Of a stretch of 64,000 nucleotides of DNA, positions 3,236-59,730 are shown one piece after another (position 1 is the stretch's first letter; the number at the start of each line of letters is the position of its first letter). Position numbers and translations under genes: made by a program. This stretch comes from an uncultured Coriobacteriaceae bacterium (lineage in GTDB: Bacteria > Actinomycetota > Coriobacteriia > Coriobacteriales > Atopobiaceae), in the NCBI GenBank assembly GCA_902779675.1, contig CACZCK010000016.1, positions 1-64,000 of the forward strand, read 5' to 3'. The notes beneath the pieces were generated by a model, which worked only from the letters and a program-made list of their open reading frames with translations, searched no databases and was not told the origin of the DNA.

Positions 3236-4422
3236 TGCGCCTGCGCCCCCTCTCCGGAGATACGATAGACCTGGCAGGCACCTGCGCCAAAGCAGGCGTC
3301 CATGCCCTCGACGTAGGCGTCGAGCAGCTCAGTCGGCACGAAGGCCTGGATGGAGCCGCCGAAGCCACCACCATGGATGCGCGTGGCTCCCCGCCCCTGC
3401 AGCAGGCGCGTCGAGAGCGCGATGGCCACCATCGCGTCCTGCTCCCGCGCGCCGCCCACGCTCACGTTCTGCAGGAACATGGCCGAGCTGGCGCCGGAGC
3501 GCTCCGTCAGCAGCAGAAAGCGTGCGAGATCGCGCGCGCCCAGTGCTTCCCAGCGCGCGTCGACCAGCTCCATCTCCTGCCAATAGTGGAGCGCACGCAG
3601 CACCATGCGGTCACCCAGCTTGCGCCGGAGCTCGGGCAGGCGCTCGACCAGCTGGAGCTCGCGCACATCGCAGAGACGCCTGCCACCCAGCGCCCGCGCC
3701 ACCTTGCGCATCTCGGCTGGCACGGCTGCGTACTCGTCGGTGTAGGCGCTGTGGTCGCAGCCCACGTCGGTCAGGCAGAGCGCCAGGCCGTAGTCGGCGA
3801 AGTCCAGGGCGAGGCGCCTGGTGGCCGGGCGCTCCTCGGCAAAGTCCATGTACGACAGCCCGCCCATGCTCACGGCCAGCTGGTCCATGAGCCCGCAGGG
3901 CTTGCCGAACCAGTCGCGCTCCACGCGCTGGGCCAGCTGGGCCGCCTCGACGTTGTCGATCTCGCGACCCGGCCAGAGGGCCTCCATCGCACGGCAAAGC
4001 GCCAGCTCGTAGGCCGCCGACGACGACAGCCCACCACCTGCGGGAATGTCGCTTGCCATCACGAGGTCGAAGCCCGCCGGGCGGCGGCCCGTGAGAGCCA
4101 TCTGCGCGGCCATGCCCCGCACCAGCGCGGTGGACGTCACGTACTCGGCCTCGCTCGGCTCGAGGGAGTCGAGCCCCACCGCCACCAGGTCGTGCCCCGC
4201 GCTGTAGACGCGGATCGTGTCCGTACCGTTGGGCGCTGTCAGACCCTCAATGCAGCGGTCGAGCGAGGCGGCGATCACCCGGCCGCCCTCGTGGTCGGTA
4301 TGGTTGCCGGCAACCTCGGTGCGCGCCGGGGCACGAACCGCGAGGACGCCCTCCACGCAGCGTCCGGTCTTCTCGATAAACGTGGCCCCCAGCCTGTCGA
4401 CTATGCCTGTGACATCGATCAT
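3226..4422 (-). CDS. galK: Galactokinase
   Basis: Phosphorylates galactose at C1 with ATP, the entry step of the Leloir pathway. The 398 residues carry the substrate motif RTEVAGNHTDHEGG (residues 34-47, with presumed catalytic R34 and D43) and the GHMP-kinase ATP loop IPAGGGLSSSAAYE. The start chosen is the ATG at 4422, behind GGAGAGGAG. The frame stays open far upstream through the antisense of lacG, but that extension has no homology or ribosome binding site. The gene follows lacG after a 332-bp repeat-rich gap and overlaps galT. Confidence 0.96.
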   Translation of the reverse strand: MIDVTGIVDRLGATFIEKTGRCVEGVLAVRAPARTEVAGNHTDHEGGRVIAASLDRCIEGLTAPNGTDTIRVYSAGHDLVAVGLDSLEPSEAEYVTSTALVRGMAAQMALTGRRPAGFDLVMASDIPAGGGLSSSAAYELALCRAMEALWPGREIDNVEAAQLAQRVERDWFGKPCGLMDQLAVSMGGLSYMDFAEERPATRRLALDFADYGLALCLTDVGCDHSAYTDEYAAVPAEMRKVARALGGRRLCDVRELQLVERLPELRRKLGDRMVLRALHYWQEMELVDARWEALGARDLARFLLLTERSGASSAMFLQNVSVGGAREQDAMVAIALSTRLLQGRGATRIHGGGFGGSIQAFVPTELLDAYVEGMDACFGAGACQVYRISGEGAQAQWV

Positions 4423-4754
4423 TTCGTGCTCCTCTCCGCGGGCCATTTCCGCAGCCTGGCGCCATACGCTCCTGCGCTCGCAGCCCGGCAACACCCGCTC
4501 CCGAATCTGCAGCTGTGCAGGCCCGTCCGCGCAACCAAGCGCTACCTGCCCTCCGCCCGCAGCTCGGCAGGCATGCCCCCTCGCAACCCAGTGCAGCTCG
4601 CTCCTGAACCTGCAGCTCCTTAGCTCCGCAACCGACGCTGCCAGCACCAACGCTGTAGCCCAGTCTGCCACCACGCCGCAGCCAGGCCGCAGCAGCTCTC
4701 GCGCCCAGCACCGCAGCCAGGCCTGCAGCAGCTCTCGCGCCCAGCGCCCCTCGC
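4423..4754 (-). repeat. Repeat-rich gap between lacG and galK
   Basis: 332 bp without a convincing gene. It contains a direct tandem duplication, copy 1 at 4676-4710 and copy 2 at 4711-4746 (35 and 36 bp, about two differences; both run from CCGCAGCCAGGCC to CTCGCGCCCAGC). The rest is degenerate, with many GCAGCTC/GCTGC-like elements. No terminator with a U-tract is visible, so read-through from lacG to galK is plausible. Confidence 0.75.
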
Positions 4755-53681: not shown

Positions 53682-55394
53682 CTACTCCATCTCGTCGGGA
53701 TCGAGCGCGTCATCGGCTGCGTCCCACGGCTCGGCAATGCTATCCTCCGCCTCGCCGGCCAGACGCTCCCGCTCTGCCTGCGCCTCGGCAAACGCCGCCT
53801 TCATGGTCTGGTTGCCTCTGGTCAGACGCTTGACGGCGAGCTTCTCGCCGCGCTTGCTCGCCGTGCCCAGATGCTTGGCCGCCGTACCCATCTGCTGCTT
53901 GAGGTCATTGAGCTTTGCGATGATGGCATCGATGTCCTTGACGGCACGCTCGTAGTTCTTGGAGGCGAGGGTGTAGTCGTTCTCGATGCCGCCCACCAGG
54001 TCTTTGACCTTGTCCTCGAAGCGCGTCACGTCGAGCTCCTCGCGCTTGGTGCGCTCGAGCTGCAGGCGGTACGGCTGGGCGGTGAGAGCGGCCGCCTTGA
54101 GCAGGCCGATGATGGTGGTAAAGCACTGCGGACGCACCACGAACATCTTGGGGTAGCGCCACGAGACGTCGGCGATGCCGGCGTTGTAGAAGTCGTTGTC
54201 GGGCTCGAGCGTCGAGACCAGTACCGCGTATTCGCAGTTCTTCTTGGTGCGGTCGGCGTCGAGCTTCTTGAAGTGGTCCTCGTTGCGCTTGCGGTTGGCA
54301 ACAGACGACTGCTCCTCCTCGTTCTTCATCTCGAACATGATGGAGAGCAGCTCGTTGCCCTCGTCGTCGTAGTCGCGGAAGACGAAGTCCCCCTTGGTGC
54401 CGCCCACAGCCTCGTTATCCTTCTCGAAGTAGGCGCGCGGGTAGGCCTGCAGGCGGATGCGGTCAAACTCCGTCTGGCAGTGCTGCTCGAGCGACTCGCC
54501 GATGAGCTTGGTGGACAGGCTCATGCGGTAGTTGCGCAGGCGCTCGATGTCGTCGCGGTAGCGCTCGATGAGCTCGTCTTTGGCCTTGAGCTGGCGCTCA
54601 GTGTCGTGAGTAAGCTCGTTCTCGCGCTGGGCCATCTGCTCGCGCAAGTCGGCCTGGGCGCGTCTGCCATTTGCCTGCTCCACCTTGAGCTGGGCCTCCA
54701 GCTGGTCGCGGCTGCGCTCGAGGTCGGCCGTGGCGCGCAGCAACTCTGCCTCGCCCTGGGCGCGCAGGGTCTGCTCCTGAGCAGAGAGCTCCGCCTTGAG
54801 CCGCGTGACCTCGCCCGAGAGGGCTTCCTCACGCTCGTGGGCCTTGTCGCGCGCAGCCTGTGCGGACTCCTGCGCCTTGGCGCGCTGCTCGTCCATCTGG
54901 TGTTGAAGCGCCGCACGCTCCTGGGCCGCCTGGGCACGCACCTCCTGCAGCGCCAGCTCGCGGGCCTGCTGCTCCTGCCTGAGCTGCGCCTGGAGCCTGG
55001 CACGCTCCTCTCCCGCAGCCGAGCGCTCCCGCCCAATGGCCAGCTCTTGCTCGCGTTGAGCGGCCTCGAGCTGTGTGCGGAGCCGCGCCAGCTCCTCGCT
55101 CGCGGCGGCCCGCTCCTGCTGGGCGGTCAGCTCTTGCCTGTGGGCGGCATCGTCGAGCTGGGCCTGCAGCTGGGCGACCTGTGCCTGCGCCTCGGCCACA
55201 CGTCGGTCGGCCTCGCGGCGCTCCTCGGTGCGCGCCGTCTCGAGCTGGGCCTCATGCAGGTGGCCAGCCTCGGCAAGGCGCTGCTCGAGGTCGTGGGCAA
55301 ACAGCTCGTCACGCAACTGCCGCGTAAGGTCCTCGACCTGGGAAGGGTCGACCTCGATGATCTCGCCGCAGTTGGGACACTTGATCTTTGCCAT
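53682..55394 (-). CDS. DUF2130-family coiled-coil protein
   Basis: A 570-residue protein beginning with a half zinc ribbon (IKCPNCGEIIEVD). A long coiled coil rich in Glu, Gln, Ala and Arg follows (about residues 25-320), then a conserved domain with YRMSLSTKLIGESLEQHCQ, GGTKGDFVFRDYDDEG and SIMFEMKNEEEQS, characteristic of DUF2130. The acidic D-x-D/E-x-K arrangement suggests a restriction-endonuclease-like fold as in RmuC relatives, but activity is unproven. The ATG at 55394 follows AAGGAGG. It is paired with the HD hydrolase gene. Confidence 0.87.
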   Translation of the reverse strand: MAKIKCPNCGEIIEVDPSQVEDLTRQLRDELFAHDLEQRLAEAGHLHEAQLETARTEERREADRRVAEAQAQVAQLQAQLDDAAHRQELTAQQERAAASEELARLRTQLEAAQREQELAIGRERSAAGEERARLQAQLRQEQQARELALQEVRAQAAQERAALQHQMDEQRAKAQESAQAARDKAHEREEALSGEVTRLKAELSAQEQTLRAQGEAELLRATADLERSRDQLEAQLKVEQANGRRAQADLREQMAQRENELTHDTERQLKAKDELIERYRDDIERLRNYRMSLSTKLIGESLEQHCQTEFDRIRLQAYPRAYFEKDNEAVGGTKGDFVFRDYDDEGNELLSIMFEMKNEEEQSSVANRKRNEDHFKKLDADRTKKNCEYAVLVSTLEPDNDFYNAGIADVSWRYPKMFVVRPQCFTTIIGLLKAAALTAQPYRLQLERTKREELDVTRFEDKVKDLVGGIENDYTLASKNYERAVKDIDAIIAKLNDLKQQMGTAAKHLGTASKRGEKLAVKRLTRGNQTMKAAFAEAQAERERLAGEAEDSIAEPWDAADDALDPDEME

Positions 55395-55482
55395 GGCAAC
55401 CTCCTTGGCCGGACGGGCGTTCGGGCAAGCATACGCCCCCGACCGGACACGAATCACCCCTCGATTGTAGCCCTCTCACAAA

Positions 55483-57116: not shown

Positions 57117-58397
57117 ATGAAGCGCGAGTACTATAACCAGCACAGCGACGTGCTCAATGAGGACATGTCCATGATCGTCTACGGCGAGGGCGGCTACCCC
57201 GTCATCGCCTTCCAGGCACAGGACGCCAAGAGCAACAACTTCGAGGACTTCGGCATGATCGACGCCCTCGCCCCCTTCATCGACGAGGGCCGCATCCAGG
57301 TCTTCTCCGTCGACAACCTGGACGAGCAGAGCTGGTCTGACCAGGGCGGCGACAAGGGTGCTCGCGCCTGGCGCCAGGAGGAGTACTTCAAGTTTGTGAC
57401 CGACGAGCTCGTCCCGCGCGTTCACGCCTGGAACAACTCCGACCTCCGTCCGCTCACCGTTGGCTGCAGCATGGGCGCCACGCACGCCGCCATCGCCGCC
57501 TTCCGCCGCCCGGACCTCTTCCAGGGCTGCATCGCGCTGTCCGGCGTCTATCGCACCAGCTTCTTCTTCGGCGACTGGATGGACGAGAACCTCTACAACA
57601 ACGACATCCCCGCGTTCCTCACCAACATGCCCACCGATCACCCCTACGTGAACCTCTACAACCAGCGCCAGCTGGTGATGTGCGTGGGCCAGGGCGCCTG
57701 GGAAGAGGGCATCGACGACCTGCACTACATCGACGACCAGCTCAACCGTCTGGGCGTGAGCCACTGGTGCGACTTCTGGGGCACCGACGTCAACCACGAC
57801 TGGCCCTGGTGGCGCAAGCAGATGCCCTACTTCATGGCCGAGGTCCTGAGCGACATCGACGCCCAGCAGGAGTGGGAGCAGCCGACGATGACTGCCGAGG
57901 CTCCGAAGGCTGAGGAGAAGGTCGAGGAGAAGGCACCTGCCAAGAAGCCGGCTGCCAAGCGCACCACCACGCGCAAGGCTACCACGGCCACCAAGACCGC
58001 GACCACCGAGAAGGCCGCTGCCACCAAGGCTGCTGCCGCCAAGGCTGAGGAGGCCCCGAAGGCCGAGGCCAAGATCGAGGAGGCCGTCGCCGAGGCCGCC
58101 ACGACCGCCAAGAAGCCGGCCGCCAAGCGCACCACCACCCGCAAGGCTGCCGCCACCAAGACGACCGCTGCCAAGAAGACGGCTGCCGCCAAGGCCGAGG
58201 AGGCCCCGAAGGCCGAGGCTAAGGCCGAGGAGGCCGTCGCCGAGGCCGCCACGACCGCCACGACCGCCAAGAAGCCGGCCGCCAAGCGCACCACCACCCG
58301 CAAGGCTGCCGCCACCAAGACCACGGCCGCCAAGACGACCACTGCCAAGAAGACCACCACGCGCCGCACCACCAAGAAGGCCAGCGACGCCGAGTAG
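57117..58397 (+). CDS. Esterase-family hydrolase with a histone-H1-like lysine-rich tail
   Basis: A 426-residue two-part protein. Residues 1 to about 258 are an esterase-D-type alpha/beta hydrolase with the nucleophile elbow GCSMGAT (S118) and a probable catalytic histidine in DVNHDWPWWR (H227). From about residue 260 to the end runs a tail of Ala, Lys, Thr, Glu and Arg. It repeats AAKKPAAKRTTTRKA three times, alternating with acidic AEEAPKAEAK segments, and resembles eukaryotic histone H1 and mycobacterial HupB tails. The tail should bind DNA, RNA or a polyanion. The ATG at 57117 follows GGAGAGGA. Confidence 0.87.
   Translation: MKREYYNQHSDVLNEDMSMIVYGEGGYPVIAFQAQDAKSNNFEDFGMIDALAPFIDEGRIQVFSVDNLDEQSWSDQGGDKGARAWRQEEYFKFVTDELVPRVHAWNNSDLRPLTVGCSMGATHAAIAAFRRPDLFQGCIALSGVYRTSFFFGDWMDENLYNNDIPAFLTNMPTDHPYVNLYNQRQLVMCVGQGAWEEGIDDLHYIDDQLNRLGVSHWCDFWGTDVNHDWPWWRKQMPYFMAEVLSDIDAQQEWEQPTMTAEAPKAEEKVEEKAPAKKPAAKRTTTRKATTATKTATTEKAAATKAAAAKAEEAPKAEAKIEEAVAEAATTAKKPAAKRTTTRKAAATKTTAAKKTAAAKAEEAPKAEAKAEEAVAEAATTATTAKKPAAKRTTTRKAAATKTTAAKTTTAKKTTTRRTTKKASDAE
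57952..58380 (+). repeat. Coding repeats of the lysine-rich tail
   Basis: Three copies of a block encoding AKKPAAKRTTTRKA begin near 57940, 58110 and 58270. Each is followed by a Thr/Ala/Lys stretch, and the first two also by an acidic block. The DNA of the copies is similar enough to suggest recent duplication or slippage. Confidence 0.75.
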
Positions 58398-58576: not shown

Positions 58577-59730
58577 ATGAACGTCGTCTTCATATCACCG
58601 CAGTTCCCCGACACCTACTGGAACTGGTGCGACCGCCTGCGCCGCAACGGCGCCACCGTGCTCGGCATCGGCGACACCCCCTACGACAACCTCACCCAGG
58701 AGGTCAAGGCCTCCCTCAACGAGTACTACTGGGTCCCGTCGCTGGAGGACTACGACCAGGTCTTCCGCGCCGTAGCCTTCTTCAGCTGGAAGTACGGCAA
58801 GATCGACTGGATCGAGTCGCAGAACGAGTACTGGCTCGCCCAGGACGCACGCCTGCGCGATGACTTCCACGTGACCACCGGCGCGGGAAGCGCGCAGATG
58901 GCGCAGTGGCAGTCCAAGGCCGAGATGAAGCCGCTCTACGCCGCGGCGGGCACGAGGTCCGCGCCTTCGCGGCCGAGGTCGGATACCCCCTGTTCACCAA
59001 GCCCGAGCGCGGCGTGGGCGCGGGCGGCGCCCGCAAGATCGTCGACGAGGCAGCCCTAGAGAACCTGCTCGCCTCCGATCTCGACGAGCCCTACGTCCTC
59101 GAGGAGTATGTGGAGGGCGAGCTCTGCTCCTACGAGGCCATCGTCAACTCCAAGGGCGAGGTGCTCTTTGAGAACCAGTCGGAGTTCCCACCCTCCATCG
59201 CCGACACCGTGGAGTTCATGCTCGACGTCGCCTATCACGCCTGCCCCGACGTCGACCCCAAGCTCGCCGCCGCAGGCAAGGCCACCATCAAGGCCTTCGG
59301 CATCACGAGCCGCTTCGTGCACATGGAGTTCTTCCGCCTGACCGAGGACAAGCCCGGCCTGGGGGCCAAGGGCGACTACGTAGGCCTCGAGGTCAACGTG
59401 CGCGCACCGGGTGGCTACACCCCCGACTTCATCAACTTCGCCCATTCCGCCGACGTGTACCAGATCTGGGCCGACATGGTCACCACCGACACCACGACAC
59501 ATGGCAGCAACGGAGAATGCTACTACGGCACCTATGCCTGCCGTCGCGACTGCCATAGCTACGTGCACACGCACCAGGAGATCATGGATGCCTTTGGCAG
59601 CATCATCTGCATGCAGGGCCGCATGCCCGACGTGCTCTCCGACGACCTGGGCAACGACTTCTACGTCGCACGTGCCAAGGACCTCGAGGAACGCAACGCG
59701 TTTGTGGACTTTGTCCAGCTACAGGCATAG
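58577..59730 (+). pseudogene. ATP-grasp carboxylate-amine ligase gene with a frameshift/deletion
   Basis: The first part starts at ATG 58577 behind GAAAGGA (MNVVFISPQFPDTYWNWCDR) and reads to about 58946 (KAEMKPLYAAAG). The homologous protein then continues in another frame from about 58947 (EVRAFAAEVGYPLFTKPERG), through ATP-grasp residues LEEYVEGELCSYEA and LEVNVRAPGGYTPDF, to the stop at 59730. About 10-15 residues normally present between the parts are missing, so a short out-of-frame deletion is likely. It is either a recent pseudogene or a sequence error. The intact family ligates a carboxylate to an amine using ATP. Confidence 0.8.

What the first reader, a model, noticed from the sequence alone, without database searches (positions are those of the whole stretch)
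57117..58397. Hydrolase carrying a histone-H1-like tail
A complete alpha/beta-hydrolase domain (S118, H227) is followed by about 167 residues made of AKKPAAKRTTTRKA-type repeats alternating with acidic blocks. Such tails bind DNA in HupB and H1. An esterase tethered to the nucleoid, RNA or cell-envelope polyanions would be unusual; it might remove acyl marks from DNA-bound proteins.
Basis: partly seen in the sequence, partly recalled or inferred. Interest (0 to 1): 0.75.

Follow-up and report, generated by a model that had tools for sequence, protein, structure and literature searches.

The report
Esterase sharing glycogen enzymes' histone-like tail
A gut bacterium's small esterase ends in a long, positively charged, histone-like tail, and almost the same kind of tail is found on the enzymes that build glycogen in these bacteria, which suggests a shared anchoring tag for a carbon store rather than an enzyme that edits DNA-bound proteins.

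Summary
57117-58397 encodes a 426-aa protein: a PF00756 hydrolase domain (S118, near-invariant E196, H227; folds like feruloyl esterases, Ag85C and FrmB) and a disordered 171-aa A/K/T/E/R tail (33 K, 8 R, 20 acidic). The tail is real: orthologues across the family carry one, different in sequence but constant in charge (K+R 24±3%). Homologues in other phyla lack it and usually sit beside an ATP-grasp ligase gene, as here. 'H1-like polycationic tail' is a fair description; 'deacylase of DNA-bound proteins' is not supported. Half of the tailed orthologues examined (34 of 68) and nearly all of a paralogue clade have lost the catalytic serine. An unbiased search for similar segments in the family found them mainly on this protein, glycogen branching enzyme (GlgB) and glycogen synthase (GlgA). 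GlgB has a Lys-rich tail in 40 of 41 genomes of the order but 0 of 24 from other classes of the phylum; in the window's own genome GlgB and a second GlgA are tailed. Best reading: a polyanion-binding tag shared with glycogen synthesis, working like the nucleoid tethers of PHA and polyphosphate granules (PhaF, AlgP). Binding and localisation are untested.

The parts
57117..57881 (+). alpha/beta-hydrolase (PF00756, CE1/Ag85/FrmB-like) domain, residues 1-255; probable triad S118-E196-H227
   Evidence: Pfam, conservation, AlphaFold pLDDT mostly above 90, Foldseek to feruloyl esterases, Ag85C, FrmB
57882..58394 (+). disordered polycationic tail, residues 256-426: three AKKPAAKRTTTRKA blocks alternating with AEEAPKAEAK-type acidic blocks
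   Evidence: translation, composition, pLDDT mostly below 50
58003..58346 (+). degenerate ~159-bp tandem repeat that encodes most of the tail
   Evidence: Tandem Repeats Finder and direct repeats
58577..59730 (+). partner gene: ATP-grasp ligase related to L-amino-acid ligases (RizA, BacD). Here it is broken: N-part in the frame from 58577, C-part in the frame of 58906-59730; 37 bp are missing at 58951/58952 compared with L040
   Evidence: tblastn, PDB sequence hits, Foldseek, pairwise alignment

Best explanation
The protein is a cytosolic PF00756 hydrolase from an old two-gene unit (hydrolase + ATP-grasp ligase). In Coriobacteriales it has gained a long intrinsically disordered polycation. The tail works as an electrostatic anchor to a polyanion (nucleoid DNA, RNA or polyphosphate). 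Because the same kind of appendage is fixed on glycogen branching enzyme throughout the order, and sits on glycogen synthase in several genera, the most likely job of the tail is to place the protein with the glycogen-making enzymes on one scaffold, in the way PhaF and AlgP tie PHA and polyphosphate granules to the nucleoid. The hydrolase domain supplies a small-ester activity in members that keep the triad (the window's does) and only a binding or scaffold function in members that lost the serine. Shown: domain, intact triad residues, predicted disorder, conserved charge with variable sequence, similar tails on GlgB and GlgA, repeated loss of the serine with the tail kept, at least two separate tail gains. 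Inferred: polyanion binding, co-localisation with glycogen synthesis, a nucleoid tether. Unknown: the substrate.
For: Unbiased DNA pattern searches for Lys spaced by S/P/T/A over 61 and 81 family genomes, with matches identified by reading their ORFs: by my hand count about 28 of some 45 listed gene instances are this hydrolase or its paralogue (11), GlgB (10) or GlgA (7); the rest are mostly singletons (Rho, S20, L17, L22, TatA-like and others). GlgB has a Lys-rich C-terminus in 40 of 41 genomes of the order and 0 of 24 from other classes of the phylum. In the window's own genome the second GlgA (C5:69895) has an N-terminal extension of about 215 aa with KPKRTRKATTRKTTKAAAAKAEEKP blocks, and GlgB ends in KRGARKALGSAAAKATKKSTSGKSAAKGTRAKKA. 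K+R is 24±3% in hydrolase tails and 31±3% in GlgB tails while T, P and A vary. Serine is lost in 34 of 68 tailed members, and Ser118 is Gly in 24 of 25 paralogues, many of which end in a Lys-rich tail after a helical-looking stretch. Hydrolases of a separate origin in two genera gained their own tail (one clade rejected, p=8e-6), and in exactly those two genomes GlgA has a C-terminal Lys-rich tail. Precedent: PhaF, PhaM, AlgP (PMC9239181, PMC13052382, PMC3574117).
Against: The link to glycogen rests on shared tails: the hydrolase is not beside glg genes in the 43 loci checked, apart from one distant case with GlgB nearby (L048), and genomes exist with tailed GlgB and no detected hydrolase. Similar tails also occur on RNA-binding and other proteins (Rho, S20, L17, L22, TatA-like, GatB), so the tail may be a general polyanion module. 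Several species of the window's genus have the hydrolase without a tail. Tail compositions of hydrolase and GlgB do not co-vary between genomes (Thr: rho -0.09). No binding or localisation data exist.
Confidence: 0.45

Rival explanations
1. General polyanion-binding or solubility appendage without any special tie to glycogen: Lys-rich tails arise easily in these GC-rich genomes and persist on abundant cytosolic proteins, giving loose RNA or nucleoid association.
For: Sporadic tails on Rho, S20, L17, L22, TatA-like, GatB, TetR and other proteins; fast sequence turnover with only charge kept; loss in several species of the genus.
Against: Sporadic cases are mostly singletons, while GlgB is tailed in 40 of 41 genomes and hydrolase and GlgA recur in many genera; such segments are rare, one in 464 kb.
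Confidence: 0.33
2. One reading: a nucleoid-tethered esterase that removes acyl groups from DNA-bound proteins.
For: H1-like tail composition; intact triad in the window's protein.
Against: Fold relatives are CE1/Ag85/FrmB small-ester or acyl-transfer enzymes, not protein deacylases; many tailed members have no nucleophile; untailed homologues keep the same domain and the ATP-grasp partner, so the substrate probably predates the tail.
Confidence: 0.05
3. The tail is an electrostatic partner of other proteins rather than an anchor to nucleic acid, for example pairing with acidic tails such as the (EPEPVVEAAP)n part of the second GlgA to form a condensate.
For: GlgA2 of this genome has both a basic block and a long acidic EPEP block, seen also in relatives.
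Against: GlgB and hydrolase tails in other genera are nearly purely basic and often occur where no acidic GlgA2 was found.
Confidence: 0.12

Closest known systems
PhaF (Pseudomonas PHA phasin)
   Same: C-terminal histone-H1-like, intrinsically disordered AKP-rich tail; carbon-storage setting; the paralogue clade here also has a helical-looking stretch between domain and tail
   Different: The N-terminal part is an amphipathic phasin helix that binds PHA, not an alpha/beta hydrolase; DNA binding and granule segregation are shown for PhaF and untested here
AlgP (Pseudomonas polyphosphate-granule protein)
   Same: KPAA-type C-terminal tail of similar length (154 aa)
   Different: Helical N-terminus; organises polyphosphate granules; not an enzyme
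CE1 / PF00756 esterases (feruloyl esterase BT_4077, FrmB, antigen 85C)
   Same: Fold and Ser-(Glu/Asp)-His triad; Ag85 also uses Glu as the acid
   Different: No tail; only 12-18% identity; substrates known for those, unknown here; no ATP-grasp partner known to me
HupB and other actinobacterial proteins with AKP tails (e.g. the SigA N-terminal extension, PDB 8dy7)
   Same: Lys/Ala/Pro-rich disordered segment in an actinobacterium
   Different: HupB has an HU fold; SigA is a transcription factor; neither is a hydrolase
L-amino-acid ligases RizA and BacD (for the partner gene)
   Same: ATP-grasp fold; best PDB relatives of the neighbour by sequence and by structure
   Different: About 15% identity; the partner in this window is frameshifted; substrate unknown

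Membership tests
PF00756 Esterase (CE1/Ag85/FrmB-like) | significant match to the family profile | tested here: met
   E=3.3e-14, 53.7 bits against a cut-off of 22
PF00756 Esterase (CE1/Ag85/FrmB-like) | nucleophile elbow GxSxG with acid and His | tested here: met
   GCSMG S118, E196, H227 conserved; lost in many tailed relatives but present in the window's protein
PF00756 Esterase (CE1/Ag85/FrmB-like) | esterase or acyltransferase activity | not testable with these tools
   needs an assay
Histone-H1-like tail proteins (PhaF/AlgP/PhaM type) | long disordered Lys/Ala/Pro(Thr)-rich C-terminal tail with net positive charge | tested here: met
   171 aa, 41 K/R against 20 D/E, pLDDT mostly below 50
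Histone-H1-like tail proteins (PhaF/AlgP/PhaM type) | binds DNA and attaches a storage granule to the nucleoid | not testable with these tools
   no binding or localisation data
PhaF-type phasin | phasin (PHA-binding) domain | tested here: not met
   Pfam reports only PF00756 and a weak Abhydrolase_1 match
HupB / HU | HU DNA-binding fold | tested here: not met
   no HU domain reported; alpha/beta-hydrolase fold
Protein deacylases (sirtuin or HDAC type) | sirtuin or HDAC-type catalytic domain | tested here: not met
   only hydrolase-fold families matched

The most novel reading that the evidence does not exclude
Coriobacteriales have a glycogen counterpart of the PHA and polyphosphate nucleoid tethers: H1-like tails on GlgB, GlgA and this hydrolase (and on a serine-less, PhaF-like paralogue with a helical linker) hold glycogen synthesis on the nucleoid or another polyanion and organise glycogen granules.
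Probability: 0.3. Interest if true: 0.8.

Novelty: new variant of a known kind. Interest (0 to 1): 0.58.

Why it matters
H1-like tails are known to position PHA and polyphosphate granules, but a 2025 review of organelle positioning in bacteria does not mention glycogen at all (PMC13052382). An order-wide Lys-rich tail on glycogen branching enzyme, with similar tails on glycogen synthase and on an otherwise unexplained hydrolase, would give a directly testable case for how a soluble carbon store is placed and inherited, and would be a striking convergence. It also puts a large family of unannotated hydrolase/ATP-grasp pairs, and their repeatedly serine-less descendants, in a possible physiological setting.

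Tried and rejected
Searching the own genome with the whole protein or the tail found only this locus: the first look gave hundreds of candidates but none passed scoring, presumably because of composition correction, so I used DNA patterns and sampled stretches instead. The pattern K[SPTA]3K[SPTA]3K misses the window's own tail because its spacings differ. NCBIfam gave no family for the protein, and PDB sequence search of the domain gave only weak hits. Correlation of tail composition between hydrolase and GlgB, as a sign of a shared partner, was not found. A phylogenetic correlation between tail and serine loss was not significant (independent pairs, median p=1), so I do not claim that tail gain causes serine loss. 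No glg cluster beside the hydrolase except GlgB near L048. No RNA family in the region; promoter and terminator scans uninformative. Papers joining esterase, ATP-grasp and Coriobacteria, or glycogen branching enzyme and Coriobacteria: none held.

Full report
What is there. The ORF at 57117-58397 (+) encodes 426 residues. Residues 10-237 match PF00756 Esterase at E=3.3e-14. The AlphaFold model, built on 44 homologues, has pLDDT above 90 over most of residues 1-250 and mostly below 50 from 256 to the end. Foldseek against the PDB gives Bacteroides feruloyl esterases, antigen 85C and S-formylglutathione hydrolases, best E about 1e-13, 12-18% identity. S118 (GCSMG), E196 and H227 are near-invariant, so the domain should be catalytically competent. 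The 171-residue tail has 33 K and 8 R against 20 acidic residues, and its DNA is a degenerate 159-bp repeat.

The tail is real, lineage-bound and fast-changing. In relatives 89-97% identical over the domain, the tails have different lengths and sequences but the same character. Homologues from Clostridia, Halanaerobium, Proteobacteria, Spirochaetales and others end right after the domain. Within the window's genus some species have no tail (L011, L014, L016, L018, L019, L021). Across 22 genomes K+R is 24±3% of the tail while Thr, Pro and Ala shift widely: charge density is kept, sequence is not.

Old partner. In most of the 43 loci fetched from other genomes, inside and outside the order, an ATP-grasp gene lies next to the hydrolase. 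Its nearest solved relatives are the L-amino-acid ligases RizA and BacD. In the window this gene is frameshifted by a 37-bp gap at 58951/58952; this may be an assembly error. The hydrolase/ligase pair predates the tail, so the hydrolase's substrate probably has nothing to do with DNA-bound proteins.

Other tailed proteins. Composition-corrected searches did not find such tails, so I searched 61 and 81 family genomes with DNA patterns for K(S/P/T/A)-spaced segments and read the ORFs that held them. The recurrent carriers are this hydrolase, glycogen branching enzyme GlgB and glycogen synthase GlgA (together about 28 of some 45 gene instances by my hand count from the truncated match list); the others are mostly single cases (Rho, S20, L17, L22, a TatA-like protein, GatB and others), plus a PRC-barrel protein seen in a few genera. 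A direct check of GlgB: 40 of 41 genomes of the order (both families that have GlgB) carry a Lys-rich C-terminal segment, against 0 of 24 from other classes of the phylum. The window's own genome has two GlgA; one is plain and sits in a glgB-glgP-glgC-glgD-glgA cluster, the other carries a long basic-plus-acidic N-terminal extension; its GlgB has a short Lys-rich end. In an unbiased 464 kb of this genome the hydrolase tail was the only such segment.

Tail without catalysis. In 84 family members examined, 34 of 68 tailed ones lack Ser118 (mostly S to D, including one whole genus), against 1 of 16 untailed; all 30 readable homologues outside the family keep it. A deeper paralogue clade has Gly in 24 of 25 cases, a long helical-looking stretch, and often a Lys-rich end. 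On the tree the serine state changes at least 6 times and the tail state at least 13 times; the two are not correlated once kinship is allowed for. So the sound conclusion is only that the tail is retained where serine catalysis is impossible, which argues against a function that always needs esterase activity. The hydrolases of two genera descend from a different part of the tree (one-clade hypothesis rejected, p=8e-6, group named after seeing the tree) and have their own tails; in the same two genomes GlgA carries a C-terminal Lys-rich tail.

Mechanism. PhaF and PhaM tie PHA granules, and AlgP polyphosphate granules, to the nucleoid with H1-like tails; AlgP's KPAA tail binds DNA and its loss leads to fewer, larger granules (PMC9239181; PMC13052382; PhaF structure PMC3574117). 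By analogy the tails here are most likely polyanion anchors that bring this hydrolase and the glycogen-building enzymes to one scaffold. I put about 0.85 on polyanion binding, 0.45 on the shared glycogen setting as stated, and 0.3 on a true nucleoid tether for glycogen. The main rival is a general polyanion or solubility appendage.

Limits. Everything is sequence-based. There is no full list of tailed proteins for this genome.

Noticed in passing
window 58951/58952 (ATP-grasp gene 58577-59730): A clean 37-bp deletion relative to close relatives (L032, L040) frameshifts the ATP-grasp partner gene; real pseudogene or metagenome assembly error.
   Followed up: partly
L040 (G135), match at 4001-4724: The near-identical hydrolase of this relative has a clean 41-bp deletion in its domain, while its ATP-grasp gene is intact: a similar small deletion in another assembly.
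   Followed up: partly
L082, L083, L093, L094, L296-L314: A paralogue clade of PF00756 proteins with Gly in place of the catalytic serine, a long helical-looking stretch with a recurring AEWIAGEA-like motif, and often a Lys-rich end; looks like a pseudo-enzyme scaffold.
   Followed up: partly
L177 (G000:C5), ORF from 1703: Second glycogen synthase with a ~215-aa basic then acidic (EPEPVVEAAP)n N-terminal extension; in relatives the acidic part becomes a pure EP repeat.
   Followed up: partly
L102, L257, L263: A PRC-barrel protein with a Lys-rich segment just before a conserved MGSMFGSFMDEYKKASK-like C-terminus recurs in several genera of the family.
   Followed up: no
L166 (G058:C2): The GlgB tail runs on into a sequence that looks to me like a tRNA-binding domain near the contig end; possibly a chimeric contig.
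   Followed up: no
window 53682-55457 (-): Long Ala/Glu/Gln/Arg-rich, probably coiled-coil N-terminal part in front of a DUF2130 domain.
   Followed up: no
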